Source: Halopseudomonas phragmitis (GTDB lineage: Bacteria > Pseudomonadota > Gammaproteobacteria > Pseudomonadales > Pseudomonadaceae). Taken from it: a stretch of 64,000 bases of DNA. The notes under the pieces are model-generated. The model ran no database searches. It saw only the letters and a list, made by a program, of their open reading frames with translations, and was not told where the DNA came from. The stretch is from NCBI RefSeq assembly GCF_002056295.1, contig NZ_CP020100.1, positions 186,001 through 250,000 on the forward strand. Reading direction: 5' to 3'. Shown here piece by piece: positions 7,812-34,424 of this stretch (position 1 is its first letter; every line of letters starts with the position of its first letter). Position numbers and translations under genes: made by a program.

Positions 7812-7827
7812 CATGACCTTGAGAGCC

Positions 7828-8204: not shown

Positions 8205-8228
8205 GGAGCACAACGCGAGGTATGCGGT

Positions 8229-10331
<2,103 letters not shown>

Positions 10332-15625: not shown

Positions 15626-15627
15626 AA

Positions 15628-16015: not shown

Positions 16016-16030
16016 GGTTCCCTCTAGGTA

Positions 16031-16123: not shown

Positions 16124-16128
16124 TTTCC

Positions 16129-16560
16129 CTAGCCAACACCTAGGGCCCCAAGCACTGCTGATACAAGGATTACCACCACAAGCGCGGCGAGCGCCAATAC
16201 TGCGAACTGAAATGCTATTGCCGCAACACCGAGAACCGCTGCGCCTCCAGCCACACGAACCGGTTCCTTCAATGCAACTCCCATAACCGCCAGTATCACT
16301 GCCATCCCACCCAGAATCGCAGTGGCTAGGCTGACAACCCAGTCAGTGTCGTAATTTTTCGACGAATGGCTATAAGCCACCTCTCCCTTCAACGCTGCCA
16401 CAGTGGCTTCGCGTATCGATACTGCTTTCTCTGCTACGACCTGCTCTAAAGATGGCTTAGGAGAGAATGGGCCAGCCCAAAAGTGAACCAGCGCGAGCAT
16501 TAAAGCTACCGCTCCAACCCCGATGCCAAGAAAGCTTATCGTGGACTTTCTGTCATCCAT
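16129..16560 (-). CDS. Cassette-encoded membrane protein, unknown function
   Basis: 143 residues, about four hydrophobic segments: one at residues 9-29, then three closely packed in the C-terminal half (LATAILGGMAVILAVMGVAL, GGAAVLGVAAIAFQFAVLAL, LVVVILVSAVLGALGVG). The loop between helix 1 and 2 is hydrophilic and charged. Start ATG 16560 after AAGGAGATC. Not recognised as a named family. Confidence 0.75.
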   Translation of the reverse strand: MDDRKSTISFLGIGVGAVALMLALVHFWAGPFSPKPSLEQVVAEKAVSIREATVAALKGEVAYSHSSKNYDTDWVVSLATAILGGMAVILAVMGVALKEPVRVAGGAAVLGVAAIAFQFAVLALAALVVVILVSAVLGALGVG

Positions 16561-16578
16561 GCTTGATCTCCTTAGAAA

Positions 16579-16650
16579 ATGTCACGCCCGCAGCACGGGC
16601 AGAGTTGTAGCGCAGCGGAAATTCTGTCCCTGTGGCTGCGATTGTTACAT
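16579..16650 (-). other. attC site (attC-c)
   Basis: Cores ATGTCAC (16579) and GTTACAT (16644). The interior GCCCGCAGCACGGG...TGTAGCGCAGCGGAAATT is nearly identical to attC-f at 19609-19680, showing two cassettes with the same site type. Confidence 0.85.
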
Positions 16651-16662
16651 GCAAGCTCATGA

Positions 16663-17010
16663 CTAAAGCTCTGGCAGCGAACTTGCCTCGGAGGCTGGCA
16701 TCATTTCCCAGGTCACCAATACACCGCTGGGCAGCTCTACGGAGGCACCAGACGAAATGCTCTCCATAAAGGCGAGCACGGATTCTTCACGAGGGTTTCT
16801 CTCATTGAGATCGGCTTCAGACTGGGGTACGTACCAAATTCCTCCAGCAGAGTTCCAGACTGATGAGCTGACATTAACTGGGTAAAACGCGCCCAACGGA
16901 TAGGCGCCATCGGATGGTCTACTGCCATACAGTCGTCGAATCGCTTCTGTGAGTGGGTAGATCACGCCTCGGATATTACGCCGAAAGTTTGGCATTGGTC
17001 TAAACGGCAT
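16663..17010 (-). CDS. Cassette-encoded hypothetical protein
   Basis: 115 residues, soluble, not recognised. It has a Pro/Arg-rich N-terminus and a central aromatic patch (AGGIWYVPQSEADLNERNPREE). ATG 17010 or 16995 could start it. It occupies a complete cassette between attC-c and attC-d with no other ORF. Confidence 0.65.
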   Translation of the reverse strand: MPFRPMPNFRRNIRGVIYPLTEAIRRLYGSRPSDGAYPLGAFYPVNVSSSVWNSAGGIWYVPQSEADLNERNPREESVLAFMESISSGASVELPSGVLVTWEMMPASEASSLPEL

Positions 17011-17057
17011 CTTTAAGCTTCCCTTTCTCTATCTGGTTGGTGCGCTGTCGGGCTGGC

Positions 17058-17124
17058 ATGTAACGTCTGAATTCACCGGCCTGCGCGGCTTTTCGCGCAG
17101 GTCCGGTGGAATGATGGGTTAGCC
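17058..17124 (-). other. attC site (attC-d)
   Basis: Cores ATGTAAC (17058) and GTTAGCC (17118); the inner palindrome CACCGGCCTGCGCG/CGCGCAGGTCCGGTG forms a compact 67-base site. The stop of the DUF4062 gene lies in the right core. Confidence 0.9.
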
Positions 17125-18153
17125 ATTTGTCGCATCGGATTGCTCTGGCAGTTCGGCCAGCCCCTCTTCCAACTTCACCTTGCGAAACTCTTGCAGGAGC
17201 TTTTTCCCTAGCTTGGTGAGAGACCAATATGTATTTGTGTCGCTGACTTGGTGCTTCTTCTTGGACGGCTCCACAAGATCAAGGGCAGCGAAATCAGCAA
17301 TTATTTCTGCCGTTTGATTCTTCCCAATTGGCCAGTTCTTGAAATATTTCGGCCCTCTAAGCACCTTGAGCGCTAAATCCTGGGCGACACCAAGCGATGA
17401 ATTTTCATCAATTAAATTTGGCGCCACGTAACCAAAGATATCAGCGAGCGAAAGCGTATATCTATCGGCCTCTTTCCAATTTGCGGTCTTTCGAAGTTGA
17501 AACCGTACTTCGTTCTTGGCAAGAACTCTCATAGCCCTTCCAACCGCATTTTCGCTTTCGGTGACGGCCTTTTTCATCGAATCGACTTGGTCTCGCAAGG
17601 CGGCATTTTCACTGCTCAAGCGGGTCAGTTCTTTGGTGACAAGCGGCCCTGCGACCTCATCGGCACGAACCCATCCAGTGCGCGGTGTGTTGATGATGGA
17701 CTTCATTAAGGCCACAGAAAACTTCCCACGCAGGTCGTCTCTGTTACTCCAGAACTGAACCAGTCTGGCCTTTACTTTGGTCTTGAATGCCGCGAGCTTC
17801 TTAAGCTTCTTGCTGTCACTCTCGGTTCTTGTGGATGGCCATGGAGCTACGTCGTCTATGACAAATCCGAGAACGGGCACACCTTTGCTTGATGCGTAAT
17901 CGAACTCCTTCTCTGTGTAACTAATTCCTTCGCTCGTGACTGAACCGTATCGATGCGCGACAACCACCGCATAGTAGTCAACCGAATCGATCGTTCGCGC
18001 GATTACTTTCCACTGTTCTTCGTCTGCAGCGCTGAACATTTCCATTCCGACTGGAATATGCCCCATCTCTAGCACCGCCTTAATGATCTCGTTTCGTTCA
18101 TCTTTGAGATCCTCGTAGGTCGAGCTGACGAATATCTGAAACTTCTTTTCCAT
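17119..18153 (-). CDS. DUF4062 domain protein (cassette-encoded)
   Basis: 344 residues. The N-terminal domain (about 1-110) starts KFQIFVSSTYEDLKDERNEI and includes VVVAHRYGSVTSEGISYTEKEFDYA, the signature of DUF4062, a Rossmann/TIR-like sensor domain often found at the front of NTPase or defence proteins. A coiled segment near 165-200 is followed by a C-terminal winged-helix-like region (YWSLTKLGKKLLQEF). No catalytic domain such as STAND or HEPN is visible behind it. A defence or signalling role is inference. Confidence 0.85.
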   Translation of the reverse strand: MEKKFQIFVSSTYEDLKDERNEIIKAVLEMGHIPVGMEMFSAADEEQWKVIARTIDSVDYYAVVVAHRYGSVTSEGISYTEKEFDYASSKGVPVLGFVIDDVAPWPSTRTESDSKKLKKLAAFKTKVKARLVQFWSNRDDLRGKFSVALMKSIINTPRTGWVRADEVAGPLVTKELTRLSSENAALRDQVDSMKKAVTESENAVGRAMRVLAKNEVRFQLRKTANWKEADRYTLSLADIFGYVAPNLIDENSSLGVAQDLALKVLRGPKYFKNWPIGKNQTAEIIADFAALDLVEPSKKKHQVSDTNTYWSLTKLGKKLLQEFRKVKLEEGLAELPEQSDATNG

Positions 18154-18174
18154 AGGAGCCTTCGCTGGGTATAT

Positions 18175-18235
18175 GGCTAACGCCCGCGTAATAGGCGCGA
18201 GCTTGCAAGCGTCCTAATTGACGCGATTGTTAGAA
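18175..18235 (-). other. attC site (attC-e)
   Basis: Cores GGCTAAC (18175) and GTTAGAA (18229) with the inner arms GGCGCGAGCTTGC/GCAAGC; 61 bases, the shortest site here. It closes the two-gene cassette. Confidence 0.88.
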
Positions 18236-18705
18236 TCATTGCTGTCATCTAGACGAATTAAAGCACTTTTCAAATGTATTTTCGCAGTGTAGAAACTGAA
18301 AGCATTTACTGATAATGCACCAGCGAAACCGACAAACACCCAGGCCCCAACCAACGTATTTAATGCGCTCATAATCCAAACAGCAAAGCACGGAATAGTA
18401 AACAATATACTATTTGTTATGCCGACATCAAAATGAACCTTAAGCCTCCAGTAATCCGGCCATTCATGCAAAGCCTTCTCGTTCTTATCACTTGGAAAAA
18501 GAACTGCCACTCCCTCTTTAAAAGTCCAGCCTGCGATTCCAGCAGGAAAGATCATTGCCCATTTAATCGCATCCTCATTTAGAGTTGACAACGGAAAATG
18601 GGCTGAGAGAAATTGTTGCGAAAGCATATATCCAGCCAAACACAAAACGAGAAATGCGAACTCGTAGCTGACAAAATATACTCGCAAAAAATAGAGCGCC
18701 TTCAT
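18214..18705 (-). CDS. Cassette-encoded four-helix membrane protein
   Basis: 163 residues with about four membrane helices: FAFLVLCLAGYMLSQ, WAMIFPAGIAGWTF, ITNSILFTIPCFAVWIMSAL and GAWVFVGFAGALSVNAF. A hydrophilic segment (SDKNEKALHEWPDYWRLK) lies between helices 2 and 3. Its ATG overlaps the stop of the upstream gene (TGATG), so the two are made together as a soluble/membrane pair. Not recognised. Confidence 0.75.
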   Translation of the reverse strand: MKALYFLRVYFVSYEFAFLVLCLAGYMLSQQFLSAHFPLSTLNEDAIKWAMIFPAGIAGWTFKEGVAVLFPSDKNEKALHEWPDYWRLKVHFDVGITNSILFTIPCFAVWIMSALNTLVGAWVFVGFAGALSVNAFSFYTAKIHLKSALIRLDDSNDSNNRVN

Positions 18706-19583
18706 CAGTGCTTCATATCCCGCTCTTTTGAAATCTTTTCGAACTGACTTTTCGCCTTTACCGCAAGCTCTTCAGGAATTGGCTCTTTGTCGTGAAGGAA
18801 GCTTTTTTGTGTATCACTCGTCTTGATCACGACTTCATCACCATTTTCTATTCCAACTACTTTACCCCTGCCATACCCATCGGCAGCCATCAGAATTGCA
18901 GCATCCCCAATTGCAGGCGGCTCATCTGGTTCGTATTCTGGCGCATCCATTATTTGATCCATTAGTTCGATAATTCTAGACTTCAAACCTTTTGCCTTAG
19001 AAGTCTGCTCCTTGACTGTTACTTCGGATGCGTTTCGACTTTCGATGTAATCGTTTAAGCTTCCCCATAACCTTCCAAAAAGAGGGTTTGGAGGGTGAAC
19101 TGTTGCCGAAAATTCTGTGAAATAACTCAACTTCTTGAGGCGTGAAGTAAAAGCGCGGTAGTCTGATACTGGTTCCACATCGCAAGCCACGAAGAAACCG
19201 TCAAAGGCAGCCTCAATTATAGACTTGAATCTTCTTGGAAATACATCTTCTTGAATGCCATTCCATACATGCAAAAATGCAACGCCCGAATACTCCGGCA
19301 GATATATAAATGAAGAACTGGCTTCAAGGAGGTTTGGTACATCTGCATCAACCTGAGAGCGGCTGATTTCATCAATTACCGTAGCATGCCCTTCCTTTGC
19401 ATACTTAGAGAGCTTGCCAAAGATATAAGGAGTTTATTCACTTCTATTGTCGACCACATCCGTTATCGTCCAATCAAACTTTCCGATAGACACTATAGGG
19501 GAGTTGGCAATAGCATCCATCAACCTTTCTTGATCAAGATTTATTTTTATAACTCGGCCAAGATAGTATCTTCCTCTTCTCAC
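18705..19583 (-). pseudogene. Cassette gene interrupted by an in-frame TAA (292-codon hypothetical protein)
   Basis: One continuous minus-strand frame from a GTG at 19583 (GGGGAG six bases upstream, just inside the right-hand attC) to 18705. A single TAA interrupts it at 19436-19434, codon 50. The part before the stop (RRGRYYLGRVIKINLDQERL) and after it (TPYIFGKLSKYAKEGHATVI) read on as one protein. The remaining downstream ORF starts only at 19274. Not recognised; the C-terminal third is acidic with a small beta-domain (GRGKVVGIENGDEVVIKTSD). Could be nonsense decay, recoding or a sequencing error. Confidence 0.65.
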
Positions 19584-19608
19584 TAGCAACTCCCCATAAT
19601 CTGTAAAA

Positions 19609-19680
19609 TTCTAACGCCCGCAGCACGGGAAAAATTGTAGCGCAGCGGAAATTTTGTCCCTGTGCCTGCGATTGTTAGCT
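19609..19680 (-). other. attC site (attC-f)
   Basis: Cores TTCTAAC (19609) and GTTAGCT (19674), 72 bases, near-identical inside to attC-c. Belongs to the HEPN-motif cassette to its right. Confidence 0.9.
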
Positions 19681-20238
19681 CTTGAACGGTGTTGATTGAG
19701 ACACCCATATTGATATTGCTGCACAAAGCTGCAACCCAAAAACCCAATTAATAAAACCTTCAATTTCCTTTCCTTCTAAACTGCGATTAATTTCCTTATT
19801 TCTGAATGTCGTTGGCAGTTCGTGGCTTTCGTTCTTGAAACTCCACTTCCCGTTGTGGCCAATTGCATTTCGCAAATGAAGGCAAAAGAAGAAAAAGTCC
19901 TGATTTCTGAACTCCGAGTTTAAACTATTAGATTTTGCGTAGCTCCAAGCAGCTTCAAAAGTCTGCAAAATCATATGATTAAATGTCTGTTTGACAAATA
20001 TCTCCGCTGAATCATTTTGTAAAGCATCGGAAAAACTGAACTCGTATTGAAGCCACGCTTTTGGGGCAGTCTCGTCAGCATCTAACACATGTATATTGTT
20101 TTCTTGAACTACAAATTTGAAGTTTTTAAGTAAATCACTTGATGGTGGTTTAGTAGCTAAACCAAATGCTCCGACACTAAAGTAGAAAGCGTTGCGTGCA
20201 TACTTCATTTTATACTGACATTCTTCTTTAGTGCTCAT
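19675..20238 (-). CDS. Cassette-encoded protein with HEPN-type RNAIGH motif
   Basis: 187 residues, mostly helical. HLRNAIGHNGKW at about 121-132 contains R123 and H128, the Rx4H arrangement (RNxxxH) of HEPN RNases and HEPN-like sensors. The preceding FFFFCLHLR helix fits that fold. The C-terminus is hydrophobic (FINWVFGLQLCAAISIWV). Start ATG 20238 with AAGGG. Base composition is clearly more AT-rich than the core genome. RNase or toxin activity is inferred from the motif only. Confidence 0.65.
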   Translation of the reverse strand: MSTKEECQYKMKYARNAFYFSVGAFGLATKPPSSDLLKNFKFVVQENNIHVLDADETAPKAWLQYEFSFSDALQNDSAEIFVKQTFNHMILQTFEAAWSYAKSNSLNSEFRNQDFFFFCLHLRNAIGHNGKWSFKNESHELPTTFRNKEINRSLEGKEIEGFINWVFGLQLCAAISIWVSQSTPFKS

Positions 20239-20250
20239 AATTACCCTTAG

Positions 20251-20338
20251 AGCTAACGATTAAGCTAACGGGCGGCCAAAAGCGCAGCTTTTGGACGTCC
20301 AGCGAGCGAAGTGAGCGGCGTTGAGCGCATTGTTAGCT
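20251..20338 (-). other. attC site (attC-g), with duplicated left core
   Basis: Right core GTTAGCT (20332). Two left cores AGCTAAC occur, at 20251 and 20263. The interior GGCCAAAAGCGCAGCTTTTGG palindrome gives the stem. The 12-base offset between cores leaves the exact boundary open. Confidence 0.85.
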
Positions 20339-20659
20339 TGGACGCTCAGCAAGAAACCATGCGGAAATAATGTTTGCTCCAACTGCAGCCGTGATGGCCG
20401 AGATGATAAAGCCCCATGCGGTTGCATTCGATTTGGCTGCGTAGTGGGAGGCCTTATCTATTTCGCCCGTGGACAACATTGAGTCGAAAAGTAGTGATAA
20501 ATCTGAGAACATTCCAAATGATATTCCTGAAATCATTATAAGTAGAACGCCGGCTATTAGATTTACGGCGCCCCAGTGTGGTTTTCCTTTGATAAAGGTG
20601 GTGATAAGCAGCGCGCTTACGCACAATGCAATGCCTGAATATGTTGAAACGTGTTCCAT
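20333..20659 (-). CDS. Cassette-encoded small membrane protein
   Basis: 108 residues with four hydrophobic stretches (ALCVSALLITTFI, AVNLIAGVLLIMISGISFGMF, the DLSLLFDSML region and TAWGFIISAITAAVGANIISAWFLA). Function unknown. ATG 20659 preceded by GAGG. Confidence 0.72.
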   Translation of the reverse strand: MEHVSTYSGIALCVSALLITTFIKGKPHWGAVNLIAGVLLIMISGISFGMFSDLSLLFDSMLSTGEIDKASHYAAKSNATAWGFIISAITAAVGANIISAWFLAERPS

Positions 20660-20671
20660 GGATACCTCAAA

Positions 20672-20764
20672 AGCTAACGCCCGGCTTTGGGGCGGACTTG
20701 TAGCCGCGAAGCGGCGGAAAGGCCGTCCCAGCCCCGAAGGGGCGACAACAGCCGATTGTTAGGG
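20672..20764 (-). other. attC site (attC-h)
   Basis: Cores AGCTAAC (20672) and GTTAGGG (20758) around a 93-base palindrome with GGCTTTGGGGCGG/CCGTCCCAGCCCCGAAGGGGC arms. Confidence 0.9.
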
Positions 20765-21169
20765 TGCATACCTGACCCCGCCAGAGCCAAACCCGGATTT
20801 CGCATCGTAGTACGACCAGACCTCGCCCCAAGAATGATTGCCTGTTTGAAAGCCCTTAGCCTGAAGCCAAGACCGGGTGGTTTCTGCGCGAAGCTGTTCC
20901 TTTTCCTCAGACCAATCATTCCAGCTCTTCCCATAAACAGGGTCATCATGAAACAAGGTAAGCTCTCTCAAATTTCCTTGACTAAAACCCAGTTCAATTC
21001 CGATGCCTAATTCACCATCAAAGAACGTGGGCAGGCGGTACCAAACCCAACCAGTACCGACGTCACGTACGTTGATGTCCAGACGACCAAGGAACTCCCT
21101 TAACTCTTGCTCCTTGAGGCCACGATGTATGTAGGGCCCTCCTGGATAGTTGAGTTCGAAATCGCTCAC
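20759..21169 (-). CDS. Cassette-encoded soluble hypothetical protein
   Basis: 136 residues, soluble, rich in aromatic residues, not recognised. Distinctive parts are GGPYIHRGLKEQELREFLGRL and SWNDWSEEKEQLRAE. The GTG start at 21169 has AGGGTGA just upstream. A complete single-gene cassette. Confidence 0.7.
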   Translation of the reverse strand: MSDFELNYPGGPYIHRGLKEQELREFLGRLDINVRDVGTGWVWYRLPTFFDGELGIGIELGFSQGNLRELTLFHDDPVYGKSWNDWSEEKEQLRAETTRSWLQAKGFQTGNHSWGEVWSYYDAKSGFGSGGVRYAP

Positions 21170-21176
21170 GCTTTCA

Positions 21177-21290
21177 CCCTAACGCCCTGCACAGCGGAAA
21201 AGCGGAGCAGAGCCAATTTTTGGTAAAGTGAGCGCAGCGAACCAAAAATTGGCGGCGCGTAGCTTTTTCCGCTGCTGCTACTTGTTATGT
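21177..21290 (-). other. attC site (attC-i)
   Basis: Longest site of array 1 (114 bases): cores CCCTAAC (21177) and GTTATGT (21284), with CAGCGGAAAAGC/GCTTTTTCCGCTG and CCAATTTTTGG/CCAAAAATTGG arms. Confidence 0.88.
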
Positions 21291-21292
21291 GT

Positions 21293-21676
21293 TTACTCGT
21301 ATTTAGCCAATTCATCGGTGATTGCGCTCTTTAAATCAGTTGGATTAATACACCAAAACGTCCATTCTCTATTTGGAAAAACAGCCACTTTCAATTTGTC
21401 TTGCTCGAATAGCGGCAACCAATGCTCAAGTAGATCTTCAAGAGAAATTTCAGTGGCAGTATGACCAGGGAAATTTTCATCCGCGATTTTCTGCGCATAA
21501 TCCGGATGTGGCCACAATGGGAAATATTCGAATCCTTCTGGGGCAACAGGAACCAGCCAGCCTTCATCGCTCTTAACACCCCACAATTGCTCCCAGTCGG
21601 CAATCTTGCCTATGAAGTGTACATATCTATCGAAAGTATCAAGAGCAAGAACTGATGCGAACTGCTTTCCATTCAT
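21293..21676 (-). CDS. DUF2750 family protein (cassette-encoded)
   Basis: 127 residues with the DUF2750 pattern: MNGKQFASVLALDTFDRYVHFIGKI at the start, then WGVKSDEGWLVPVAPEGFEYFPLWPHPDYA, and a late LLEHWLPLFEQDKLKVAVFPN. Function of the family is unknown. ATG 21676 chosen because it starts the domain; the frame is open to 21697. Confidence 0.78.
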   Translation of the reverse strand: MNGKQFASVLALDTFDRYVHFIGKIADWEQLWGVKSDEGWLVPVAPEGFEYFPLWPHPDYAQKIADENFPGHTATEISLEDLLEHWLPLFEQDKLKVAVFPNREWTFWCINPTDLKSAITDELAKYE

Positions 21677-21703
21677 TTTATATGGCACGCAACTCACCTT
21701 GAC

Positions 21704-21781
21704 ACATAACGCCGTGCACAGCGGCGGCAGCGCAGCTGACGTCCGGCGCCGCCAGGCGCGAACTGCTGCACTTTGTTATGT
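21704..21781 (-). other. attC site (attC-j)
   Basis: Cores ACATAAC (21704) and GTTATGT (21775) with GTGCACAGCGGCGGCAG-type arms; perfect core complementarity, 78 bases. Confidence 0.92.
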
Positions 21782-21805
21782 GTTGTTCTCAAACTCATAT
21801 ACTCT

Positions 21806-22111
21806 TTATTTTCTTAGCTTCTTATTGATTAAAACTTCTTGCTGCCATTTACCAGGCTTCTTGTCAGTGCGATGAATGCAACCTACCCAGCAACATGGCT
21901 GTTTCTTTCCTTCAAGAAGTTCCTCAATGGCACGATCAATCCGTTTTACTCGGGTCTTTTCCTGTTTCGCATCCTCTACCCAGCAAATAAATTCATTACG
22001 AGCAATGGGTGTCAGACTTTCCCAAAGTTCAATAATTTTCTTATTTTTACTCAAAGCCTCAACAAAATCTTGAGGCAGTTCATGTACAAGACCACCGGAG
22101 AGATTAGACAT
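21806..22111 (-). CDS. YdeI/OmpD-associated domain protein
   Basis: 101 residues of the bacteriocin-protection YdeI/OmpD-associated family: LPQDFVEALSKNKKIIELWESL then RNEFICWVEDAKQEKTRVKRIDRAIEELLEGK. Family function is obscure. The C-terminal segment (CCWVGCIHRTDKKPGKWQQ) lies outside the domain. A 5' leader of about 75 bases separates it from attC-k. Confidence 0.82.
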   Translation of the reverse strand: MSNLSGGLVHELPQDFVEALSKNKKIIELWESLTPIARNEFICWVEDAKQEKTRVKRIDRAIEELLEGKKQPCCWVGCIHRTDKKPGKWQQEVLINKKLRK

Positions 22112-22185
22112 AATACTTCGACCTACTCTTTGTTACCCACCCAATGGCTATCCGATGTGTGGTTCGATGATGAAGCGCTCGAAAC

Positions 22186-22282
22186 ACATAACGCTCACGC
22201 TAACCCGCCGGCGCCGCGCACGCGCGGTGCGGACCCAAACGCGCTAGCGGTTGGGCGGTCGGTGTTGAGCGTGTTGTTAGGC
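22186..22282 (-). other. attC site (attC-k)
   Basis: Cores ACATAAC (22186) and GTTAGGC (22276). Inner arms CGCTCACGCTAACCCGCC/GGCGG...GTGTTGAGCG. The two cores differ, showing that it was formed by recombination of cassettes with different site ends. Confidence 0.85.
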
Positions 22283-22582
22283 TTCATGGGTTTGCCGAAC
22301 CTCGCTGAACCGCATGTAGGCGAGGTTGCCTTGAGACTCCAGCTTCCCGGAGCCCACGAGTGCACGCACGCGCTCAGCATAAAAGACATCCGAAAACTCG
22401 GGATATTGCTGGCTGAGAGTTTCCATACTCAGGCTGACCACCATAGCCGCCTTGCGCCAGCGAGAATGCGTACAAGACAACACCGCCGAATCGATGGCCT
22501 CGAGTTCTGCCGAGCTGAGCTTCGCGAGCAGCGATCTCTCTCGTGCGCTCAATGGCGGGTTGGGTATAGGTGCTTCGTCCAT
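22277..22582 (-). CDS. DUF3658-like protein (cassette-encoded)
   Basis: 101 residues. The run SRWRKAAMVVSLSM, then DVFYAERVRALVGSGKLESQ and MRFSEVR is the DUF3658 signature, a domain often attached to DUF1835 but here alone. ATG 22582 has AGAAGAG upstream. The TTG at 22606 would lie inside attC-l. Function unknown. Confidence 0.78.
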   Translation of the reverse strand: MDEAPIPNPPLSARERSLLAKLSSAELEAIDSAVLSCTHSRWRKAAMVVSLSMETLSQQYPEFSDVFYAERVRALVGSGKLESQGNLAYMRFSEVRQTHEA

Positions 22583-22594
22583 GTCTCTTCTGAA

Positions 22595-22675
22595 GCCTAA
22601 CGCCAAAATATGCGGCGCCCGACGCAGGAGGGCGTCCGGCGCGTGAAACGCGCGTACATAATTTTCTTGTTAGGC
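22595..22675 (-). other. attC site (attC-l)
   Basis: Cores GCCTAAC (22595) and GTTAGGC (22669), perfectly complementary. The interior CGGCGCCCGACGC...GGCGTCCGGCGCG forms the stem. Confidence 0.93.
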
Positions 22676-22682
22676 TCGCTGG

Positions 22683-22976
22683 TCATAGCCCATTGCCTTG
22701 ACTGTATAGGCTGTTGTTGAAATCGCGCTTCTGAATATTTCGATTATCGTACTCTGCCCACCACAAGACGTTCCGAGGATCGTCGACGGCCTTCTTCGCA
22801 TAGACAGCTAAAGCATCATAGTCACGCTCTGATAGATAAAGGACACTTCTCAGAATGCGGGAAATGCTGATCGCGGTCTCAATGGTGAGTACAGGCTCCA
22901 ATGCCTGTTTTGCTCGCATTACGTCCGCATAGTTTTCCTTTATCCAGCGCTCGATGTCATCTTCAAAAACGGTCAT
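22683..22976 (-). CDS. Cassette-encoded small hypothetical protein
   Basis: 97 residues, predicted soluble and helical, not recognised. Core sequence TIETAISISRILRSVLYLSERDYDAL, ending in an aromatic stretch (NVLWWAEYDNRNIQ). ATG 22976 lies seven bases from the attC-m core. Confidence 0.68.
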   Translation of the reverse strand: MTVFEDDIERWIKENYADVMRAKQALEPVLTIETAISISRILRSVLYLSERDYDALAVYAKKAVDDPRNVLWWAEYDNRNIQKRDFNNSLYSQGNGL

Positions 22977-22982
22977 GGAATT

Positions 22983-23060
22983 GCCTAACGCTCGCCATAA
23001 ACGGCGCGAGGAATGAGCGTCCGGCGACCGCAGGGAGCGAATTTAATGGCTTTGTTAGGC
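22983..23060 (-). other. attC site (attC-m)
   Basis: Cores GCCTAAC (22983) and GTTAGGC (23054); inner GTCCGGCG and GGCGCGAGGAATGAGC arms. Same subtype as attC-l and attC-n. Confidence 0.93.
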
Positions 23061-23088
23061 AACAGCTTTACCGCTCCAGATAACATCA

Positions 23089-23709
23089 TTATTTTTTCGC
23101 CAATCGTTCAGCAAACCATTTGTAGTGGGTGCTATTCTCAACTGGTATGTTTTTGATAGCTGCTCGAAGTACCCGCAGTTCTTCATCTGTTTCTTTTCTT
23201 TTTGAATATATAATTGCAAGCCGTCGATATGTAAACGGAGTGTCGACCCCTTCTTCTAGCAGCCGTTCATATTCAAGTATGGCTGCATCTACATTTCCTT
23301 CTTTTTCTAACTCTTGGCCGCGCATATTTCCTTCAGCGGCCTCCCGATATTGCGCCTGCAGGAATTCTTGCTCTAAATCAGCTATTGATTGCTCAACTTT
23401 TGAAAGCTGAGTGAGCTTGATAAATGAATGCTCGTCTGAAAGTTTTTTAAGTTCTTCCAGGCGTTTCTTAGCTACATCTAGCCTCGATACTTTTGTGTCA
23501 GCATTCTTTGACTCGTTGGCAATCTTCAGTGACTCGTTAATGATCTCAACCAATCGCTGTGCCGTAGCCGAAATCGCTTGATGGTATTGATCTAGCTTCG
23601 GCTCTAATTCATTCGCGGCCTGTTTTGGTGAGTTTTTCTGGGACTTTTTTACCCAGACCCAAACGGCTGCTACAGCCGCGATGATGAACAGAATTGTAAA
23701 TGCTTCCAC
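23089..23709 (-). CDS. Membrane-anchored coiled-coil/TPR-like cassette protein
   Basis: About 206 residues: an N-terminal helix (FTILFIIAAVAAVWVWV), a basic stop-transfer, a long coiled coil (about 35-130) and a C-terminal TPR-like repeat (GQELEKEGNVDAAILEYERLL, then PFTYRRLAIIYSKRKETDEELRVLRAAI). GTG 23709 with AGGGGA six bases upstream is the likely start; earlier codons would lie in attC-n. Function unknown. Confidence 0.75.
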   Translation of the reverse strand: MEAFTILFIIAAVAAVWVWVKKSQKNSPKQAANELEPKLDQYHQAISATAQRLVEIINESLKIANESKNADTKVSRLDVAKKRLEELKKLSDEHSFIKLTQLSKVEQSIADLEQEFLQAQYREAAEGNMRGQELEKEGNVDAAILEYERLLEEGVDTPFTYRRLAIIYSKRKETDEELRVLRAAIKNIPVENSTHYKWFAERLAKK

Positions 23710-23724
23710 TAGGAATCCCCTGTT

Positions 23725-23811
23725 GCCTAACGCCTGCATAAACGGCGGCCTGACAAGGCCGTCCGGTGGAGGCCCTTCAGGGCCGGAACGAATTTGATGC
23801 AATTGTTAGGC
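23725..23811 (-). other. attC site (attC-n)
   Basis: Cores GCCTAAC (23725) and GTTAGGC (23805); inner arms AACGGCGGCCTGACAAGGCCGTCC and GGCCCTTCAGGGCC. Confidence 0.93.
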
Positions 23812-24252
23812 ATGCGATGTTGCCAACTGCTTAAATGCAGGACTTGTACCTGTGCGTGTTACGCCACACTCAGTACGAGCATATGCACATTTTAAAGTGT
23901 GCTGCGGGTTACTGGAGAATGGCGGCTGTCCGTATATGGTTACCGAGCTTCTAGGCTCTAAACGCCTTGGCCAAGGCTGGCCATCAATCAGTACGGGGTT
24001 GCCGTAAGCACCTCGTTTATTTGTATTTCGATAAAAAACTCCCGCCTCCGCTATCGTAATCGCAAAAGAGCTCAGATTAGTGATTTCAATACAGAACGTC
24101 AGGCGGGGATCAGCATCACCAAAAGGTACAGCGTGTTTTGGTCTTACTCGTAGCTTTACTCTTGAGCTATCGAGTGCCTTCCAAGTGTTCATGACACCCA
24201 GAACAGCGCCGAGCACTGCTATAGAGAGCGTGATTCCTTCAACGATACTCAT
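23806..24252 (-). CDS. Membrane-anchored beta-domain cassette protein (first cassette)
   Basis: 148 residues: one N-terminal helix (ITLSIAVLGAVLGVMNTWK) followed by a soluble beta-rich domain (RLTFCIEITNLSSFAITIAEAGVFY) with a PWPRRLEPRSSVTIYG linker. ATG 24252 follows AAAGGAAC directly after the first core site GTTAGGC. The architecture is like that of the cassette at 59481-59978, with little sequence in common. Function unknown. Confidence 0.72.
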   Translation of the reverse strand: MSIVEGITLSIAVLGAVLGVMNTWKALDSSRVKLRVRPKHAVPFGDADPRLTFCIEITNLSSFAITIAEAGVFYRNTNKRGAYGNPVLIDGQPWPRRLEPRSSVTIYGQPPFSSNPQHTLKCAYARTECGVTRTGTSPAFKQLATSHA

Positions 24253-24263
24253 GCTGTTCCTTT

Positions 24264-24286
24264 GCCTAACATGTAAGCATTTGAAC
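24264..24286. other. Proximal recombination core (attI or attC remnant) next to the IS91 insertion
   Basis: GCCTAAC at 24264-24270 is the integrase-proximal core. It is followed by 12 bases and GAAC (24283-24286), the target tetranucleotide used by IS91-type elements. The rest of the att site seems to have been pushed to the far side of the insertion, near 26700-26800. Confidence 0.6.
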
Positions 24287-24573
24287 GGTGTGCGCAGCAT
24301 GCCGCTCAGATGCCTGTTGGACTAAGCCGCCACGCTGGTCGTGCAGCATCTATAGGGTTTTGTATTCGGCGACGAGGGTGGTCACGACCCGGTGGTCGTG
24401 GTTGTCGCGTTGAAGCATGTCGAGTGGCCTATGCATATTGTCCCTATTCGGCGCCTGATGGTCCTTGTATGCTCCAAAATTAGCGCGATTTCCCGGTGAT
24501 TGCCAGCCCTTGGCCAGCACTGCCCGTGCCTGCGTTACTCGGGCTGTCGATATCCCCCGGTCTGGCCATGATG

Positions 24574-25710
24574 TCAGCGTCGTCGCATCCGACCGCTATC
24601 GCTTACGGTGCGTGGTGCGAAGATGGCAGTACAGCGTAGCGTCGTCCGCTGGCACTGCTGGCATGGTGCCGGAACCGCTGTGGTCATGACCGGTGCGCAA
24701 GCGCTGTCGTTTTCAGTCGCAGGGTTTTCCAGGGCTTTACGTATCTGCCCCAGGCGTACCCGCCGGCAACGGTTGGCCAGAAAACCGTAATGCCTGACCC
24801 GCATCAGCCCCTTGGGCAGGATATGCAGCAGGAAACGGCGGACGAACTCGTCACCAGCCAGGGTCATGCGCCGCAGTCGTGCGCCATGCCGATAGTCCTT
24901 GTAGCTCAAGGTGACCGTCTGACTATCGATCTGTAGTACCCGGGCATTGCTGATGGCGATGCGGCGGGTGTAACGCGCCAGGTAATCGATGACACGGGTT
25001 GTGTGCTGCAAGCAGGGCTTGCTGTAGACCACCCACTCGGTCGCCATCAGCGCATTGAGCATATGCCCGACTTCTCCCGGATGTGTCACGCGCCGCAATT
25101 GCTGCTGGTCTGCCGCCTGGCGCAAGGCACTGACCATCAGGCCCCGATAACGCCGGGATAACGCCCGTACCGGGAACAGGTAGTTGCTGCGGGCCGCTTG
25201 CCACTGGCCCTGCTGATCCAGAGCGCCGGCCGGCACCAGACAATGCAAGTGCACATGCTGGCTCAAGGTTTGCCCCCAGGTATGCAGTACGGCGGTCATG
25301 CCCAATTGGCCGTTCAATCGTTTGGGATCATGGGCAAAGTGATCCAGCGTGCGCCAGACCGTACTGAACAGCAGCCGGTAGATCAGTTCTGGATGCAACT
25401 GCACCCAGCCGTTGAGCTGATGCGGCAGGGTGAACACCAGATGGTGGTAGGGCACCGGCAGCACATGGCTGTGCTGACGTTGGGCCCACTGCAGGGTTGC
25501 TCGCCACTGACACTGTGGACAATGGCGGTCTCGACAACTGAAGTATTCCACCTGCTCGTGTTGACACTCGCTGCACTGCCAGCGTCGACCACCCATGGCC
25601 GCGGTGCGACAGTGCAGCAGGTGGCGGCAGACACGCTGACGCTGTGCGTCCAGCATCTGGGGCTGAAGAAACTGGCTCAGCGCCTGCTGGACACTGGCTT
25701 CGTTACCCAT
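24574..25710 (-). CDS. IS91-family Y2 HUH transposase
   Basis: 378-residue rolling-circle transposase. It has an N-terminal zinc-binding region (CRHLLHCRTA, CSECQ, CRDRHCPQCQ), the HUH motif HVHLHC at about residue 165 and the paired-tyrosine motif YLARYTRRIAIS, then YKDYRHG. It nicks and transfers one DNA strand. The C-terminus has an extra CxxC (PCQQCQRTTLRC). Start ATG 25710 overlaps the end of the recombinase gene. Confidence 0.93.
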   Translation of the reverse strand: MGNEASVQQALSQFLQPQMLDAQRQRVCRHLLHCRTAAMGGRRWQCSECQHEQVEYFSCRDRHCPQCQWRATLQWAQRQHSHVLPVPYHHLVFTLPHQLNGWVQLHPELIYRLLFSTVWRTLDHFAHDPKRLNGQLGMTAVLHTWGQTLSQHVHLHCLVPAGALDQQGQWQAARSNYLFPVRALSRRYRGLMVSALRQAADQQQLRRVTHPGEVGHMLNALMATEWVVYSKPCLQHTTRVIDYLARYTRRIAISNARVLQIDSQTVTLSYKDYRHGARLRRMTLAGDEFVRRFLLHILPKGLMRVRHYGFLANRCRRVRLGQIRKALENPATENDSACAPVMTTAVPAPCQQCQRTTLRCTAIFAPRTVSDSGRMRRR

Positions 25711-26560
25711 GGATCACCTCCAGGCCAGCCAGCAGGTCGGTCTCGGCATTGCTGCGTTCGGTCCGACCTGGCAGCCAGTGGACATAGCGCAGCGTGGTTC
25801 GAATGTCGCTGTGGCCCAGCAAATGCTGCAACTGATGGATGGGTAATCCTGCTTCCAGCAGGTGCGTGGCATAGGCATGGCGTAACCCATGTATGCCGCC
25901 TTGACGGTACACCCCGGCACTGGCCTTGGCCCGGCAATAGACTTTCTGGATGCTGCTCGGATGAATGGCGCGCTCAGGTATCAGGTTACTGGGGAACAGC
26001 CAGTCGCTAGGTCGGTAGTGCTGCCAGTAGGCTCGCAGATGCTGTAGCACGGTGTCGCTCAGAATTACCGGGCGATCCTTGGCGCCTTTACCTTGGGTGA
26101 CACGCAACAAGTGTCGCTGGCTATCAATATTGCTGACTTTGAGTTGGCATAGCTCACTGACCCGCAAGCCACAGCTGTAGCAGACCTCCAGCATCATGTG
26201 GTGCTTGTGGTTGCGACAGGCCGCCAGGATCCGGGCCACTTCGGCCCGCGTCAGCAACTCCGGAATGCGTTGCGGCTGCTTCGGTACGGGAATCGGTGTA
26301 TCCAGATCCCCGCGCTTGAGCACCTGCATGAATAGAAAACGAATGGCATGCAGCGCTTGCCGGCAACTCGAAGCGGACAAGTGCCGCTCACACGCCAGGT
26401 ATTCCAGGTACGCACTGACCTGTTCCAGGCTAAGTTGATCAGGTGATTGCCGGTAATGCCGGGCTAGCTTCTGCACGGCATAAAGATAGGACTGATGGGT
26501 TCGGGGTGAAAAACCGCGCACTTGCATGGCGGTAATCATTTTTTGCCTGAGCGGTGTCAT
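25703..26560 (-). CDS. Tyrosine recombinase associated with the IS91-family element
   Basis: 285-residue site-specific recombinase with a SAM-like N-terminal domain (SPRTHQSYLYAVQKLARHY). The catalytic set is complete: Arg in CGLRVSE, Lys in GKGAKDR, HGLRH, LGHSDIRTT and Tyr in LRYVHW. Start ATG 26560 has GAGGAAA upstream; the frame runs on to 26629 without support. It differs from the integron integrase at 26855 and lacks its extra patch. It is likely part of the IS rather than the integron. Confidence 0.88.
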   Translation of the reverse strand: MTPLRQKMITAMQVRGFSPRTHQSYLYAVQKLARHYRQSPDQLSLEQVSAYLEYLACERHLSASSCRQALHAIRFLFMQVLKRGDLDTPIPVPKQPQRIPELLTRAEVARILAACRNHKHHMMLEVCYSCGLRVSELCQLKVSNIDSQRHLLRVTQGKGAKDRPVILSDTVLQHLRAYWQHYRPSDWLFPSNLIPERAIHPSSIQKVYCRAKASAGVYRQGGIHGLRHAYATHLLEAGLPIHQLQHLLGHSDIRTTLRYVHWLPGRTERSNAETDLLAGLEVIHG

Positions 26561-26795
26561 CTTTTGTTTCCTCACGCTGTGGGTGGAAACAAAAGTGTGG
26601 TTCGGGAACCCTGAAAGGGCCGTAACCACTCAGCCCCGCGAAGCGGTTTAGTTCAACAGTGAAGTGGATCGACAGCTTTATGACCACATATCAGTGGCTT
26701 CTCTATGATCACGCTTCTGCCAGTTTCCACCTTAAAATAATGTCGAATAGAATCAAGTGCTTACATAACAGCGCACTGCTCCAGCATGTAATCGC

Positions 26796-26826: not shown

Positions 26827-26842
26827 CTGTATATGCATACAG
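26827..26842 (+). promoter_or_regulatory. LexA (SOS) box of the integron integrase
   Basis: CTGTATATGCATACAG, a perfect CTGT-N8-ACAG palindrome, 12 bases before the intI start and just after its -10 element. LexA repression of integron integrases at this position is established in other integrons. Confidence 0.9.
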
Positions 26843-26854: not shown

Positions 26855-27819
26855 ATGGATACGTTACCACCCAAACCTCGACTCAGAGAACTGTTTCGCA
26901 ACGTCATCCGGGTTAACCGTTACAGCATCAGGACGGAAAAAACCTATTGGTACTGGGTCCGCTTTTATCTTCGTTATCATAAGATGCGACACCCGCTTAA
27001 ATGGGGCCTGCTGAAGTCAATGAATTTCTGACCTGGCTTGCAGTCAAACGCAACGTTGCTGCGGCCACCCAAAATCAGGCGTTGAATGCGCTCGTATTTC
27101 TATATGCGAAGGTACTGGAACAACCCTTGGGTGATATTGGTGAGGCTGTTCGTGCCCGTAAATCAATGCGTATTCCTACGGTGCTCACCCATGATGAAGC
27201 GATCAAGATTATAGCTCTGCTGAAAGAGCCCTATAATTTGCTCGCATCACTTATGTACGGCTCAGGCTTGCGTGTTGTCGAAGCCTGTCGGTTACGCTTG
27301 AAAGATATCGACTTTGAGCGCCAAATTATTACGGTTCACAGCGGTAAAGGTGACAAGGATAGAACCACGCTGTTGCCAGTCAGTTTGATCCAGCCTTTGC
27401 AACAGCGCAAAGCTCGGATCTTTACAGCATGGCAAGCACAAAACCCTTTTTATCAGTGCCAGGTCAGCTTGCCATTTGCGCTGAAGCGAAAGTACCCCGA
27501 GGCATCCAGGTCTGTGGAATGGCAGTGGTTTTTTCCTTCTTTGACGCTTTGCCACGACGACGATGGTGCCGTTGTTCGCCATCATTTGCATAACAGCACT
27601 GTGCAAAAAGCAGTAAAGCAAGCTGTTCGGCAAGCTGCGATTGGCAAACCCGCTGGCTGCCACACTTTCCGCCACACCTTTGCGACCGAGTTGCTGCGTC
27701 GTGGCAGCGATATCCGTACGGTACAGACGTTGCTGGGTCATGCTGACGTGCGCACGACCCAAATCTATACCCATGTTCTCGGTCAGGGATTTGCCGGGGT
27801 GCAGAGTCCATTGGGTTAG
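26855..27819 (+). pseudogene. intI: Integron integrase, frameshifted
   Basis: IntI-type tyrosine recombinase reading divergently from the cassettes. The ATG at 26855 gives MDTLPPKPRLRELFRNVIRV and the N-terminal part to HPLK, then runs to TGA at 27029. The rest (GPAEVNEFLTWLAVKRN onward) is in the +1 frame from 27001. One missing A in CTTAAATGGGG (26996-27006) explains the break. The remainder is intact: GSGLRVVE, GKGDKDR, HTFRHTFAT, LGHADVRTT, IYTHV, and the IntI-specific patch near ALKRKYPEASRSVEWQWFFPS. A protein from ATG 27001 would lack the N-terminal DNA-binding segment. Confidence 0.9.
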
Positions 27820-28156: not shown

Positions 28157-31100
28157 TTAGCCGACCCAGGCGCGAGCGTTGCGGAACATGCGCATCCAGC
28201 CGCCGTCTTCGTTCCAGTCGTCAGGACGCCAGGAGTTCTGGACAGCGCGGAATACCCGCTCGGGGTGCGGCATCATGATGGTGACGCGGCCATCGCGAGT
28301 GGTCAGGCCGGTGATGCCGTGCGGCGAACCGTTGGGGTTGGCGGGGTAGCGTTCGGTCATGCGGCCACGGTTGTCGATGTAACGCAGGGCGACGCTGTTG
28401 CTGGCTTCGCAGGCGTCGACGGCGCTGCTGTCGGCAAACTCGGCGTGCCCTTCGCCGTGGGCGATGGCGATCGGCAGGCGCGAGCCGACCATGCCGCTGA
28501 GGAAGATCGACGGTGAGGCCTGAACTTCGACCATGGCTACCCGGGCCTCAAACTGCTCGGAACGGTTGCGCACAAAGTGCGGCCAGTGATCGCTACCAGG
28601 GATCAGTTCGCGCAGGTTGGAAAGCATCTGGCAACCGTTGCAGACACCAAGGGCGAAGGTGTCCGGGCGCTGGAAGAAGGCGCTGAAGGCTTCGCGGGCC
28701 TGGGCGTTGAACAGGATCGACTTGGCCCAGCCTTCGCCGGCGCCAAGTACGTCACCGTAGGAGAAGCCACCACAGGCGACCAGCCCGCGGAATTCGGCCA
28801 GATCGACGCGGCCGGCGAGAATATCGCTCATGTGTACGTCGATGGCGGTGAATCCGGCACGGGTGAAGGCAGCCGCCATTTCCACCTGACCGTTGACGCC
28901 CTGCTCGCGCAAAATTGCCACCTGCGGGCGAATGCCGGTGTTGATGTAGGGCGCGGCGATGTCCTCATTGACGTCAAAGCTGAGCAGCGTGCTCAGACCC
29001 GGGTTGGCGTCGTCGGCCAGGGCTTCGAACTCCTGATCGGCGCACTCGGCGTTGTCGCGCAGGCGCTGGATCTGCCAGCTGGTTTCGCTCCAGGCCTGTT
29101 GCCAGGCGGCGCGGCTGCCGCTGAGTACAGCGTCGCCGTTGAAGCTGAAGTTCAGGGTCTGCTCGCTCTGCGGCTGGCCGATCACGGCGCTGCAGTCGCC
29201 CAGGCCGGCGGCGGACAGTTGCGCCAGCACCGCTTCGGTGTCGGCCTGACGTACCTGGATCACCGCGCCCAGCTCTTCGTTGAACAGTACGCCTGCCAGT
29301 TGTGCGGCGTTGTCGGCCAGCACATCAAGGCTGATATCCAGGCCACAGCGGCCGGCAAAGGCCATTTCCGCCAGAGTGGCAAGCAGGCCACCGTCGGAGC
29401 GGTCGTGGTAAGCCAGCAGCAGTTCGTCCTGATTCAGCCCTTGAATCACGGCGAAGAAGGCCTTGAGGTCTTCGGCGTCGTCCAGGTCCGGGCCGGTCTG
29501 GCCGATACGGTTGTAGACCTGGGCCAGCGCCGAGCCGCCAAGGCGGTTCTGGCCACGGCCAAGGTCGATCAGGATCAGGTCGGACTCGCCCTTGTCCAGC
29601 CGCAGTTGCGGGGTCAGAGTGGCGCGCACGTTCTGCACCGGGGCAAAGCCGGTGACGATCAGTGACATCGGCGAGGTGACGCTCTTGTCTTCGCCGGCAT
29701 CGTTCCAGCGGGTCTTCATCGACATCGAGTCCTTGCCCACCGGGATGGTAATACCCAGTTGCGGGCACAGCTCCATGCCCACGGCCTTGACCGTGTCGTA
29801 CAGGCGGGCATCTTCACCGGGGTGGCCGGCAGCGGCCATCCAGTTGGCCGACAGTTTGATGTCAGACAGTTTTTCGATCCGCGCGGCCGCCAGGTTGGTG
29901 ACGGTTTCAGCGACGGCCATGCGCCCGGAAGCCGGGGAATCGAGCAGGGCCAGCGGAGTGCGCTCGCCCATTGCCATGGCTTCACCGGTATTCACATCAA
30001 AGCTGGTGGCGGTCACGGCGCAGTCGGCAACCGGTACCTGCCAGGGGCCAACCATCTGGTCGCGGGCTACCAGGCCGGTGATCGAGCGGTCGCCGATGGT
30101 GATCAGGAAGTTCTTGCTGGCTACGGCCGGCAGGCGCAGTACACGCAGGGCGGCTTCTTCCAGGTTCATGTCCGGCTGGAAGTCGTCGCTCGGCTCGGCC
30201 TCACGCTCAACACTGCGGTGCATGCGCGGCGGCTTGCCAAGCAGGACTGACAGCGGCATGTCGACCGGCTGGTTGTCAAAATGCGTGTCATTGAGCAGCA
30301 GGTGACGCTCTTCAGTTGCCTCGCCAACCACCGCAAACGGGCAGCGCTCGCGCTCGCAGATGGCCTGGAAGCGCTCGAAATCGGCGGGATCGACCGCCAT
30401 CACGTAGCGCTCCTGGGATTCGTTCGACCAGATTTCCAGCGGGCTCATGCCCGGCTCGTCGTTGGGGATATTGCGCAGCTCGAAACGCCCGCCGCGCTCG
30501 CCATCGTTGACCAGCTCCGGGAAGGCGTTGGACAGGCCGCCGGCACCTACGTCGTGGATAAACTTGATCGGGTTCTTCTCGCCCAGTTGCCAGCAGCGGT
30601 CGATCACTTCCTGGCAGCGGCGTTCCATTTCCGGGTTGTCGCGCTGGACTGAGGCAAAGTCGAGGTCTTCGGCACTGGCACCGGTGGCCATCGACGAGGC
30701 TGCACCGCCGCCCAGGCCGATCAGCATGGCCGGGCCGCCGAGCACGATCAGCTTGGCGCCGACCGGGATCTCGTCCTTTTCAACATGATTGGCGCGGATG
30801 TTGCCCATGCCGCCGGCAATCATGATCGGCTTGTGGTAGCCGCGTACTTCCGGGCCGCGCGGGGACTGCACGGTCTGCTCGAAGGTACGGAAGTAGCCGG
30901 TCAGGTTCGGCCGGCCGAATTCGTTGTTGAAGGCGGCGCCGCCGAGCGGGCCGTCAATCATGATCTGCAGCGGGGTGACGATGCGCCCGGGCTTGCCGTT
31001 GTCTTCTTCCCAGGGCTGCTCGAAGCCAGGAATCCGCAGGTTGGACACGGTAAAGCCGCTCAGACCAGCCTTGGGCTTGCCGCCCCGGCCGGTTGCGCCT

Positions 31101-32050
31101 TCGTCACGGATCTCGCCACCGGAGCCGGTGGAAGCGCCGGGGAACGGCGCAATGGCGGTCGGGTGGTTGTGGGTTTCCACCTTCATCAGAATGTGGACCG
31201 GCTCTTCAACCGCACGGTATTCACGGCTGTCGGGCTGCGGGAAGAAACGCCCGGCGACGAAGCCCTCGATCACCGCCGCGTTGTCCTTGTAGGCCGACAG
31301 CACGCCCTCGCGGTGCATCTCATGGGTGTTCTTGATCATGCCGAACAGGCTCTTGTCCTGGGCCTGACCGTCGATATCCCAGCTGGCGTTGAAAATCTTG
31401 TGCCGGCAGTGCTCGGAGTTGGCCTGGGCGAACATCATCAGCTCGACGTCGCTGGGGTTGCGCTTGAGCTCGCTGAAGCTCTGTACCAGATAGTCGATTT
31501 CATCCTCGGCCAGGGCCAGGCCCAGCTCGACGTTGGCCTGCTCCAGCGCAGCGCGACCACCGCCGAGAATGTCGACCCGATTGAACGGCTTGGGCTCGGT
31601 ATGGGCGAACAGGCTGGCGGCGTCTTCGACCTGATCCAGTACCAGTTCGGTCATGCGGTCGTGCAGCAGCGCCTTGACCTTAGCCAGTTCCTCGCTGCTC
31701 AGCTCACCGCTGACGTAATAGGCAATGCCGCGCTCCAGCCGCTTGATTACACCCAGGCCACAGTTATGGGCAATATCGCTGGCCTTGCTCGACCACGGCG
31801 AGATGGTGCCAAAGCGCGGTACTACCAACAGCAAAGCACCATTGGGTTCTTCCACCGGTACCGAGGGGCCATAGCTGAGCAGCCGCTCAAGGACAGCCTG
31901 CTGATCGCTGTCGAGCGCCGCTGACAGGTCGGCAAAGTGCATGAATTCGGCATACAGCCCGGTAACCCCTGGCACTTTGGCCTGCACACGGGCGAGCAGT
32001 TTATTGCGGCGGAAAACGGAAAGGGCTGGGGCTCCACGCAGGCTATGCAT
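28157..32050 (-). CDS. purL: Phosphoribosylformylglycinamidine synthase (PurL)
   Basis: Large single-chain FGAM synthase, 1297 residues. It converts FGAR, glutamine and ATP to FGAM in purine synthesis. It has the N-terminal PurS-like part, a FGAM synthase core with [19 protein letters not shown] and two AIRS-like ATP domains, and a C-terminal glutaminase ([17 protein letters not shown]; nucleophile in GVCNGCQ; His/Glu in PHPER). The ATG 32050 ([13 protein letters not shown]) matches known starts; the frame opens at 32101. Confidence 0.97.
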
Positions 32051-32244
32051 GTCGGTAACGGCCTCGGTTCGGAATGGGGGGATGCAGAGAATCGAGTTCA
32101 CGCATCCTTGGAAAAAATGGAAGGCGCATAGGATACCCCAAGCGCCAGGGGGAAGCCATCAGCCGCATGCTTTGCCAACATCCGGTAGCTTTTCAGCGCC
32201 CGGTCAAGCTATTGCCGGCGAGCGCTTTTGCCTATACTGGCGCC

Positions 32245-33684: not shown

Positions 33685-34424
33685 GTTCAGCTCGGGCTCC
33701 CTCCCCGGCTCGCTCAATGTCATCACGCAACTCAATGTCATCACGAGGCGCGCAGCGCCGTGGTGATCCATAGGCCACTTGGATGGCCACGGCGCTTTGC
33801 GCCTCGCCATGACGGGATGGGGCGGGTTCTGAGTTCAGCTCGGCGCCCCTCCCCGACTCGCTCGATGCCATCACGCTACTCAATGTCATCACGAGGCGCG
33901 CAGCGCCGTGGTGATCCATAGGCCGCCTGGATGGCCGCGGCGCTTTGCGCCTCGCCATGACGGGATGGGGTGGGTTCTGAGTTCAGCTCGGCGCCCCTCC
34001 CCGACTCGCTCAATGTCATCACGCCACTCAATGTCATCACGAGGCGCGCAGCGCCGTGGTGATCCATAGGCCGCTTGGATGGCCGCGGCGCTTTGCGCCT
34101 CGCCATGACGGGATGGGGTGGGTTCTGAGTTCAGCTCGGCGCCCCTCCCCGACTCGCTCGATGCCATCACGCTACTCAGTTTCATCACGAGGCGCGCAGC
34201 GCCGTGGTGATCCATAGGCCGCCTGGATGGCCGCGGCGCTTTGCGCCTCGCCATGACGGGATGGGGTGGGTTCTGAGTTCAGCTCGGCGCCCCTCCCCGA
34301 CGCACTCGATATCATCACGCCACTCAATGTCATCACGAGGCGCGCAGCGCCGTGGTGATCCATAGGCCGCTTGGATGGCCGCGGCGCTTTGCGCCTCGCC
34401 ATGACGGGATGGGGTGGGGCGAGG
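33685..34424. repeat. 148-bp tandem repeat, five copies, with REP-like hairpin
   Basis: Copies begin at 33685, 33833, 33981, 34129 and 34277, exactly 148 bases apart, with few differences. Each holds GTTCAGCTCGG..., duplicated CTCAATGTCATCACG, and a long palindrome (arms AGCGCCGTGG and CCGCGGCGCT) followed by GCCTCGCCATGACGGGATGG. The palindrome resembles the unit at 7748-7811. It fills the gap between mltF and tadA and encodes nothing credible; bases 34425-34482 are a GC-rich tail. Confidence 0.95.

What the first reader, a model, noticed from the sequence alone, without database searches (positions are those of the whole stretch)
26855..27819. Integron integrase inactivated by a single-base frameshift but with SOS box retained
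N-terminal codons to HPLK are in one frame and GPAEVNEF onward in the next; one A missing at CTTAAATGGGG explains it. All catalytic residues and the IntI-specific patch remain, and a perfect LexA box precedes it. The array would be frozen unless another integrase acts or the frame is restored by slippage.
Basis: partly seen in the sequence, partly recalled or inferred. Interest (0 to 1): 0.7.

Follow-up and report, generated by a model that had tools for sequence, protein, structure and literature searches.

The report
Recently frame-broken chromosomal integron integrase
The gene for the enzyme that shuffles this bacterium's cassette genes has lost its reading frame; this kind of decay is common in such systems and recurs in its sister species, so the find is real but ordinary.

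Summary
intI at 26855-27819 is split between two frames: codons 1-49 from 26855, then a 272-aa ORF from 27001. The window alone lacks one alignment column after base 26998; all 24 other loci aligned have a letter there. A LexA box lies at 26827-26842, in register with relatives. Assembly error is unlikely but not excluded: of 184 conserved ORFs one changed frame, and it overlaps a long antisense ORF.

Best reading: a recent null mutation of a chromosomal integron integrase beside purL. Of 37 genus genomes searched, 13 carry an open orthologue, 15 (this one included) a broken one, 9 none of this type. The closest relative found, G018, has a different lesion and a different array. The retained SOS box is unremarkable: 9 of 12 broken and 8 of 13 open rows keep both half-sites exactly. 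intI pseudogenes are well described.

The parts
26855..27031 (+). 5' part of intI; residues 1-49 match IntI, then the frame runs out of homology and stops after 58 codons
27001..27819 (+). 3' part of intI, 272-aa ORF with catalytic residues and IntI-specific patch (residue roles recalled), lacking the first 49 residues
26998..27001 (+). place of the one-base frame break, unique to this genome among 25 aligned rows
26827..26842 (+). LexA box CTGTATATGCATACAG, 28 bases before the intI start codon
26655..26720 (.). attI region, starting at the core AACAGTG; far end approximate
24264..26657 (-). cassette-like element at attI: 5' end GTTGAACTAAACCGC, two genes, attC at its 3' end
25703..26629 (-). 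tyrosine recombinase of that element, about 31% identical to IntI, without the IntI patch
24574..25710 (-). IS91-family Y2 transposase of that element
24264..24322 (-). attC of that element (GTCCAAC...GTTAGGC)
16129..24263 (-). cassette array with attC-like sites at about 18175, 19609, 20251, 21177, 21704, 22595, 22983 and 23725 (heuristic scan, chosen from a noisy list); ORFs mostly of unknown function
28157..32101 (-). purL-like gene, convergent with intI (name recalled from the sequence, not searched; same neighbour in G028 and G003)

Best explanation
This is a chromosomal integron whose SOS-controlled integrase gene recently lost its reading frame. LexA binding to the box would still govern transcription (inferred), but translation from 26855 now ends after 58 codons. 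An internal start at 27001 would give a protein without the first half of the N-terminal domain, from a start with almost no ribosome-binding site. Shown: the frame break, its absence from 24 aligned loci, purifying selection before it, and different lesions in many genus copies. Inferred: no active IntI is made, and cassette movement by IntI has stopped in this strain.
For: Frame break unique to this genome. No other IntI in the genome: the four other matches, from three tyrosine recombinases, are partial and weak (best 2e-19). The assembly is not indel-ridden: of 184 ORFs of G018 conserved in 300 kb of G000 (73,222 aa), 1 changes frame, and it overlaps a 916-921-codon antisense ORF open in both genomes. 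dN/dS of the 272 codons is 0.05 against G015 (dS 1.48, so rough); at 195 amino-acid positions identical in four relatives G000 differs at 2, against about 13 expected if neutral since the G018 split at an assumed 3% per lineage. So the lesion is young. Of 37 genus genomes searched 15 have a broken or remnant orthologue, 13 an open one. Anti-SD pairing before 27001 is -0.6 kcal/mol, before 26855 -3.2. Published fractions: nearly one third pseudogenes (PMC2426708) and 43-46% predicted inactive (PMC3108266), both seen as passages.
Against: No activity data. A lesion this young cannot be told from an assembly error without reads; a second strain of the species was not available. The lack of amino-acid decay in the 272-aa ORF would also fit a still-functional product.
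Confidence: 0.83

Rival explanations
1. The break is a sequencing or assembly error and the strain's intI is open.
For: Little decay elsewhere in the gene; only this genome shows the break.
Against: Among 184 conserved ORFs, about 220 kb, the only frame change is in a probable antisense shadow ORF, so one within the roughly 1 kb of intI is improbable; the run at the break is only three bases long.
Confidence: 0.08
2. The 272-aa ORF from 27001 is translated and works as a shortened integrase, or both parts are joined by frameshifting.
For: ORF starts with ATG, holds the catalytic residues and the patch, and shows low dN/dS.
Against: It starts at residue 45 of the solved IntI (2a3v), inside the N-terminal domain (PF13495 split at 38/41); almost no ribosome-binding site; no open genus copy is built this way (13 of 13 align from residue 1 to 321 in one frame); no standard slippery site by eye.
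Confidence: 0.05
3. The array is not frozen because the tyrosine recombinase of the element at attI, or IntI supplied in trans, moves the cassettes.
For: The element sits next to attI in G000 and G010 and beside an IntI gene also in G039 and G568, and has its own attC; its recombinase ORF is open here.
Against: It lacks the IntI-specific patch needed for folded attC (structural knowledge, recalled); most copies examined have no IntI in the flank fetched, and the flanks of the G573 copies are not recognisable as attI; no data that it acts on other cassettes.
Confidence: 0.04

Closest known systems
intI pseudogenes of Xanthomonas chromosomal integrons (PMC12444791, abstract and passages)
   Same: Chromosomal integron kept across a genus; repeated lineage-specific loss of intI by frameshift, stop or deletion; arrays dynamic before the loss
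   Different: There intI lies mostly downstream of ilvD, here beside purL; here most copies keep an E. coli-type LexA box
IntI / TIGR02249 integron integrases, solved as 2a3v (molecule name IntI4)
   Same: Catalytic residues, patch and C-terminal domain in the 272-aa ORF
   Different: The N-terminal residues lie in another frame
SOS-controlled intI surveyed in PMC3108266 (passages)
   Same: LexA box before intI
   Different: That survey links loss of the box with inactivation; in this genus box and gene state show no clear link (9 of 12 broken against 8 of 13 open rows; small sample, five broken genomes not scored)
ISShvi3, an IS91-like element beside an attC in a Shewanella integron (PMC9229058, passages)
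   Same: IS91-like element forming a cassette with an attC
   Different: Whether it has a recombinase gene or lies at attI was not checked here

Membership tests
integron integrase (IntI) | TIGR02249 above curated cut-off | tested here: met
   272-aa ORF 362.6 bits against 265
integron integrase (IntI) | catalytic residues and IntI-specific patch | tested here: met
   alignment to 2a3v and to the open relative; residue roles recalled
integron integrase (IntI) | one open frame including the N-terminal domain | tested here: not met
   hence intI pseudogene
sedentary chromosomal integron | intI, attI and attC array at a chromosomal locus | tested here: met
   (attC by heuristic scan); single contig of 4,035,153 bases
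sedentary chromosomal integron | vertical inheritance at a fixed locus in the genus | tested here: inconclusive
   collinear locus in G018, purL neighbour in G028 and G003; the other loci were not checked for neighbours
SOS regulon member | LexA box in the intI promoter | tested here: met
SOS regulon member | LexA binding and induction | not testable with these tools
   needs wet-lab work
gene cassette (for the element at attI) | 5' end at the G^TT crossover and own attC at the 3' end | tested here: met
   excision as a circle not testable here
IS91 family (for the element at attI) | Y2 transposase | tested here: met
   PF04986 and NF033538
IS91 family (for the element at attI) | rolling-circle transposition | not testable with these tools
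   needs wet-lab work

The most novel reading that the evidence does not exclude
The element at attI (24264-26657) belongs to a widespread group of self-mobile cassettes: an IS91-type transposase plus a patch-less tyrosine recombinase, bounded by a fixed 5' end and an attC, that enters integrons at attI but also jumps elsewhere, so that it can occupy or take over integrons whose own integrase has died.
Probability: 0.12. Interest if true: 0.55.

Novelty: new member of a known kind. Interest (0 to 1): 0.2.

Why it matters
As a single case it adds one more intI pseudogene. Its use is comparative: a genus with 13 open and 15 broken orthologues among 37 genomes searched, and a pair of close species with different lesions and almost wholly different arrays, would let one time integrase loss against array turnover. 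The attC-ended IS91/recombinase element is the part that merits a separate look.

Tried and rejected
Looked for a slippery heptamer at the break: none of the standard form (by eye). Looked for a ribosome-binding site before 27001: almost none. The link between LexA-box loss and inactivation reported in PMC3108266 was tried on this genus: no clear link (five broken genomes, G016, G020, G021, G022 and G034, were left out of that table, their 5' end being missing, fragmentary or not placed). The element at attI was first taken for a plain IS91 insertion; the attC-like end and the G^TT boundary in several genomes made that unlikely, although copies at other sites show that it also moves without attI. 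The attC scan is a heuristic and noisy: its lax form lists many sites outside the array that are surely chance, and its strict form finds only 3 of the array sites. Drug-resistance or defence genes in and beside the array: 16 ORFs of 15197-24300 scanned with Pfam, 10 with NCBIfam, 10 with PADLOC. Hits were AHSA1, ABM, DUF4062, DUF2750, DUF3658, OmdA (called bacteriocin-protection), and two weak ones under their cut-offs (TPR_14, MamA); no drug-resistance family and no PADLOC family. Papers holding both Halopseudomonas and integron: one, a P. aeruginosa resistance study (listing only).

Full report
What is there. intI reads from 26855 in one frame to codon 49 and from 27001 to 27819 in the next. 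Both parts match the same family, and the split falls inside the N-terminal SAM-like domain. Against the open copy of G015 the two parts align at 88% each. In an alignment with 24 loci from 22 other genus genomes only the window lacks a column after 26998 (24 of the 36 loci fetched were given, those with a usable 5' end). The 272-aa ORF keeps the catalytic residues and the IntI patch (residue roles recalled).

Is it real? G018 is the closest relative found at this locus: the collinear parts of the window are 93-97% identical in nucleotides. Of 221 ORFs of 150 aa or more in 300 kb of G018, 184 are conserved in 300 kb of G000 (73,222 aa, median 98% identity). One changes frame in G000, and it overlaps a 916-921-codon ORF on the other strand that is open in both genomes. 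The same test flagged 15 further ORFs in G000 with an in-frame stop but no frame change, and 7 of 183 in the reverse direction (one of these with a frame change); I did not sort these into genes, wrong starts and shadow ORFs. So frame-shifting errors look rare in this assembly and the break is probably real, but only reads can settle it.

How old? The 272 codons show dN/dS 0.05 against G015; dS is near or past saturation in several pairs (no value for G000-G028), so the ratio is rough. At the 42 codons identical in G015, G028, G017 and G032 (number), G000 has 13 synonymous and 0 non-synonymous changes, and all 142 positions invariant in the 13 open copies are kept. Of 195 amino-acid positions identical in those four, G000 differs at 2, where about 13 would be expected if the gene had been neutral since the G018 split at an assumed 3% per lineage. 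The gene was therefore under constraint until recently.

How common? The protein search covered 37 genomes of the genus, this one included. The genus includes Halopseudomonas yangmingensis: locus L007 has the same upstream sequence as G019 and its contig the same length, 50,228. Thirteen genomes have an open orthologue (G003, G005, G008, G010, G015, G017, G019, G025, G026, G028, G029, G032, G036). Fifteen have broken or remnant ones (G000, G001, G002, G006, G007, G013, G016, G018, G020, G021, G022, G024, G033, G034, G035). Nine have none of this type (36 loci plus the window were examined, genomes without a locus judged; some assemblies are fragmented or incomplete, such as G020 at 79% and G031 at 75%). 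The lesions seen differ in kind and place. G018 has a stop at codon 9 and lacks the 3' part, and its first 94 codons run in one frame through the point where the window breaks. Several genomes also carry a second IntI, 46-50% identical to the 272-aa ORF (G011, G020, G021, G029, G030, and a partial one in G035).

The SOS box. Both half-sites are exact in 9 of 12 broken and 8 of 13 open rows (25 rows from 23 genomes; G013 and G033 give two each; five broken genomes not scored). In the two open rows without a box, G028 and G003, the upstream sequence is foreign up to the middle of the box. In G028 this is an insertion of about 1.3 kb with a 432-codon open frame that looks like a transposase (not searched); the G003 contig ends 97 bases before intI. 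Box retention thus says nothing special about this copy.

The array. Window 16129-26654 shares with 120 kb of G018 around the locus only 16129-16587 (at another place) and an 87-base stretch, although both sides are collinear; the arrays turned over after the two lineages split. Whether this happened before or after the break cannot be told. 'Frozen' is therefore inference, supported by the absence of another IntI in the genome.

The element at attI. Between attI (26655) and the array lies an element with an IS91-family Y2 transposase and a tyrosine recombinase, bounded by GTTGAACTAAACCGC at attI and by an attC at the other end. One search examined 26 loci from 17 genomes (L205 and L180 are the same place; many are cut by a contig end or by the 1.5-kb flank). 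The 5' end was found in 24 of 26. AGTCCAAC, the start of the attC-like hairpin, was found in 13 of 26; not all of these have a canonical second box (L203, L213 and L218 do not). An IntI lies beside it in 4 genomes (G000, G010, G039, G568); the six G573 copies and two of three in G568 have none in the flank. At the thresholds used the recombinase was found in 7 of 293 order genomes and 8 of 369 class genomes, G000 counted in both; its DNA matches 12 of 58 relatives, several only over short pieces. An IS91-like element that forms a cassette with an attC is already described (ISShvi3, PMC9229058, passages). The paper searches for the combination were seen as listings; apart from passages of PMC9229058 and, on other questions, PMC12444791 none of the papers listed was opened, so I cannot say that the attI position and the recombinase are unreported.

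Literature. PMC2426708 (passages): nearly one third of intI genes are pseudogenes. PMC3108266 (passages): 43-46% predicted inactive, correlated with loss of LexA control, with exceptions. PMC12444791 (abstract and passages): repeated lineage-specific intI loss in Xanthomonas with arrays dynamic before it. The present case fits these, apart from the retained LexA box, which a recent lesion explains.

Noticed in passing
window 24264-26657: attC-ended element at attI coding for an IS91-family transposase and a tyrosine recombinase; the same 5' end in 24 of 26 loci from 17 genomes.
   Followed up: partly
L106 about 6978-8325 (G028) and L113 1-98 (G003): The LexA box of intI is cut at the same point by sequence ending in GAAGAGCC in two species; in G028 this is a roughly 1.3-kb insertion with a transposase-looking open frame, while intI itself stays open.
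   Followed up: partly
window 58300-64000: A second group of attC-like sites (60004-60075, 62794-62894, one more just beyond the window) about 31 kb from intI, with no second IntI in the genome; G018 holds at this place a relative of the window's stretch 16129-16587.
   Followed up: partly
L176 and L177 (G030, G029), L181 (G010): attI-like sequence next to the element with no intI within the stretches fetched.
   Followed up: partly
window 33676-34413: Overlapping matches to one G018 stretch at steps of about 148 bases, pointing to a tandem repeat in the window.
   Followed up: no
window 8229-10331: ORF that looks like a TonB-dependent receptor (by eye) with a long His-Asp repeat.
   Followed up: no
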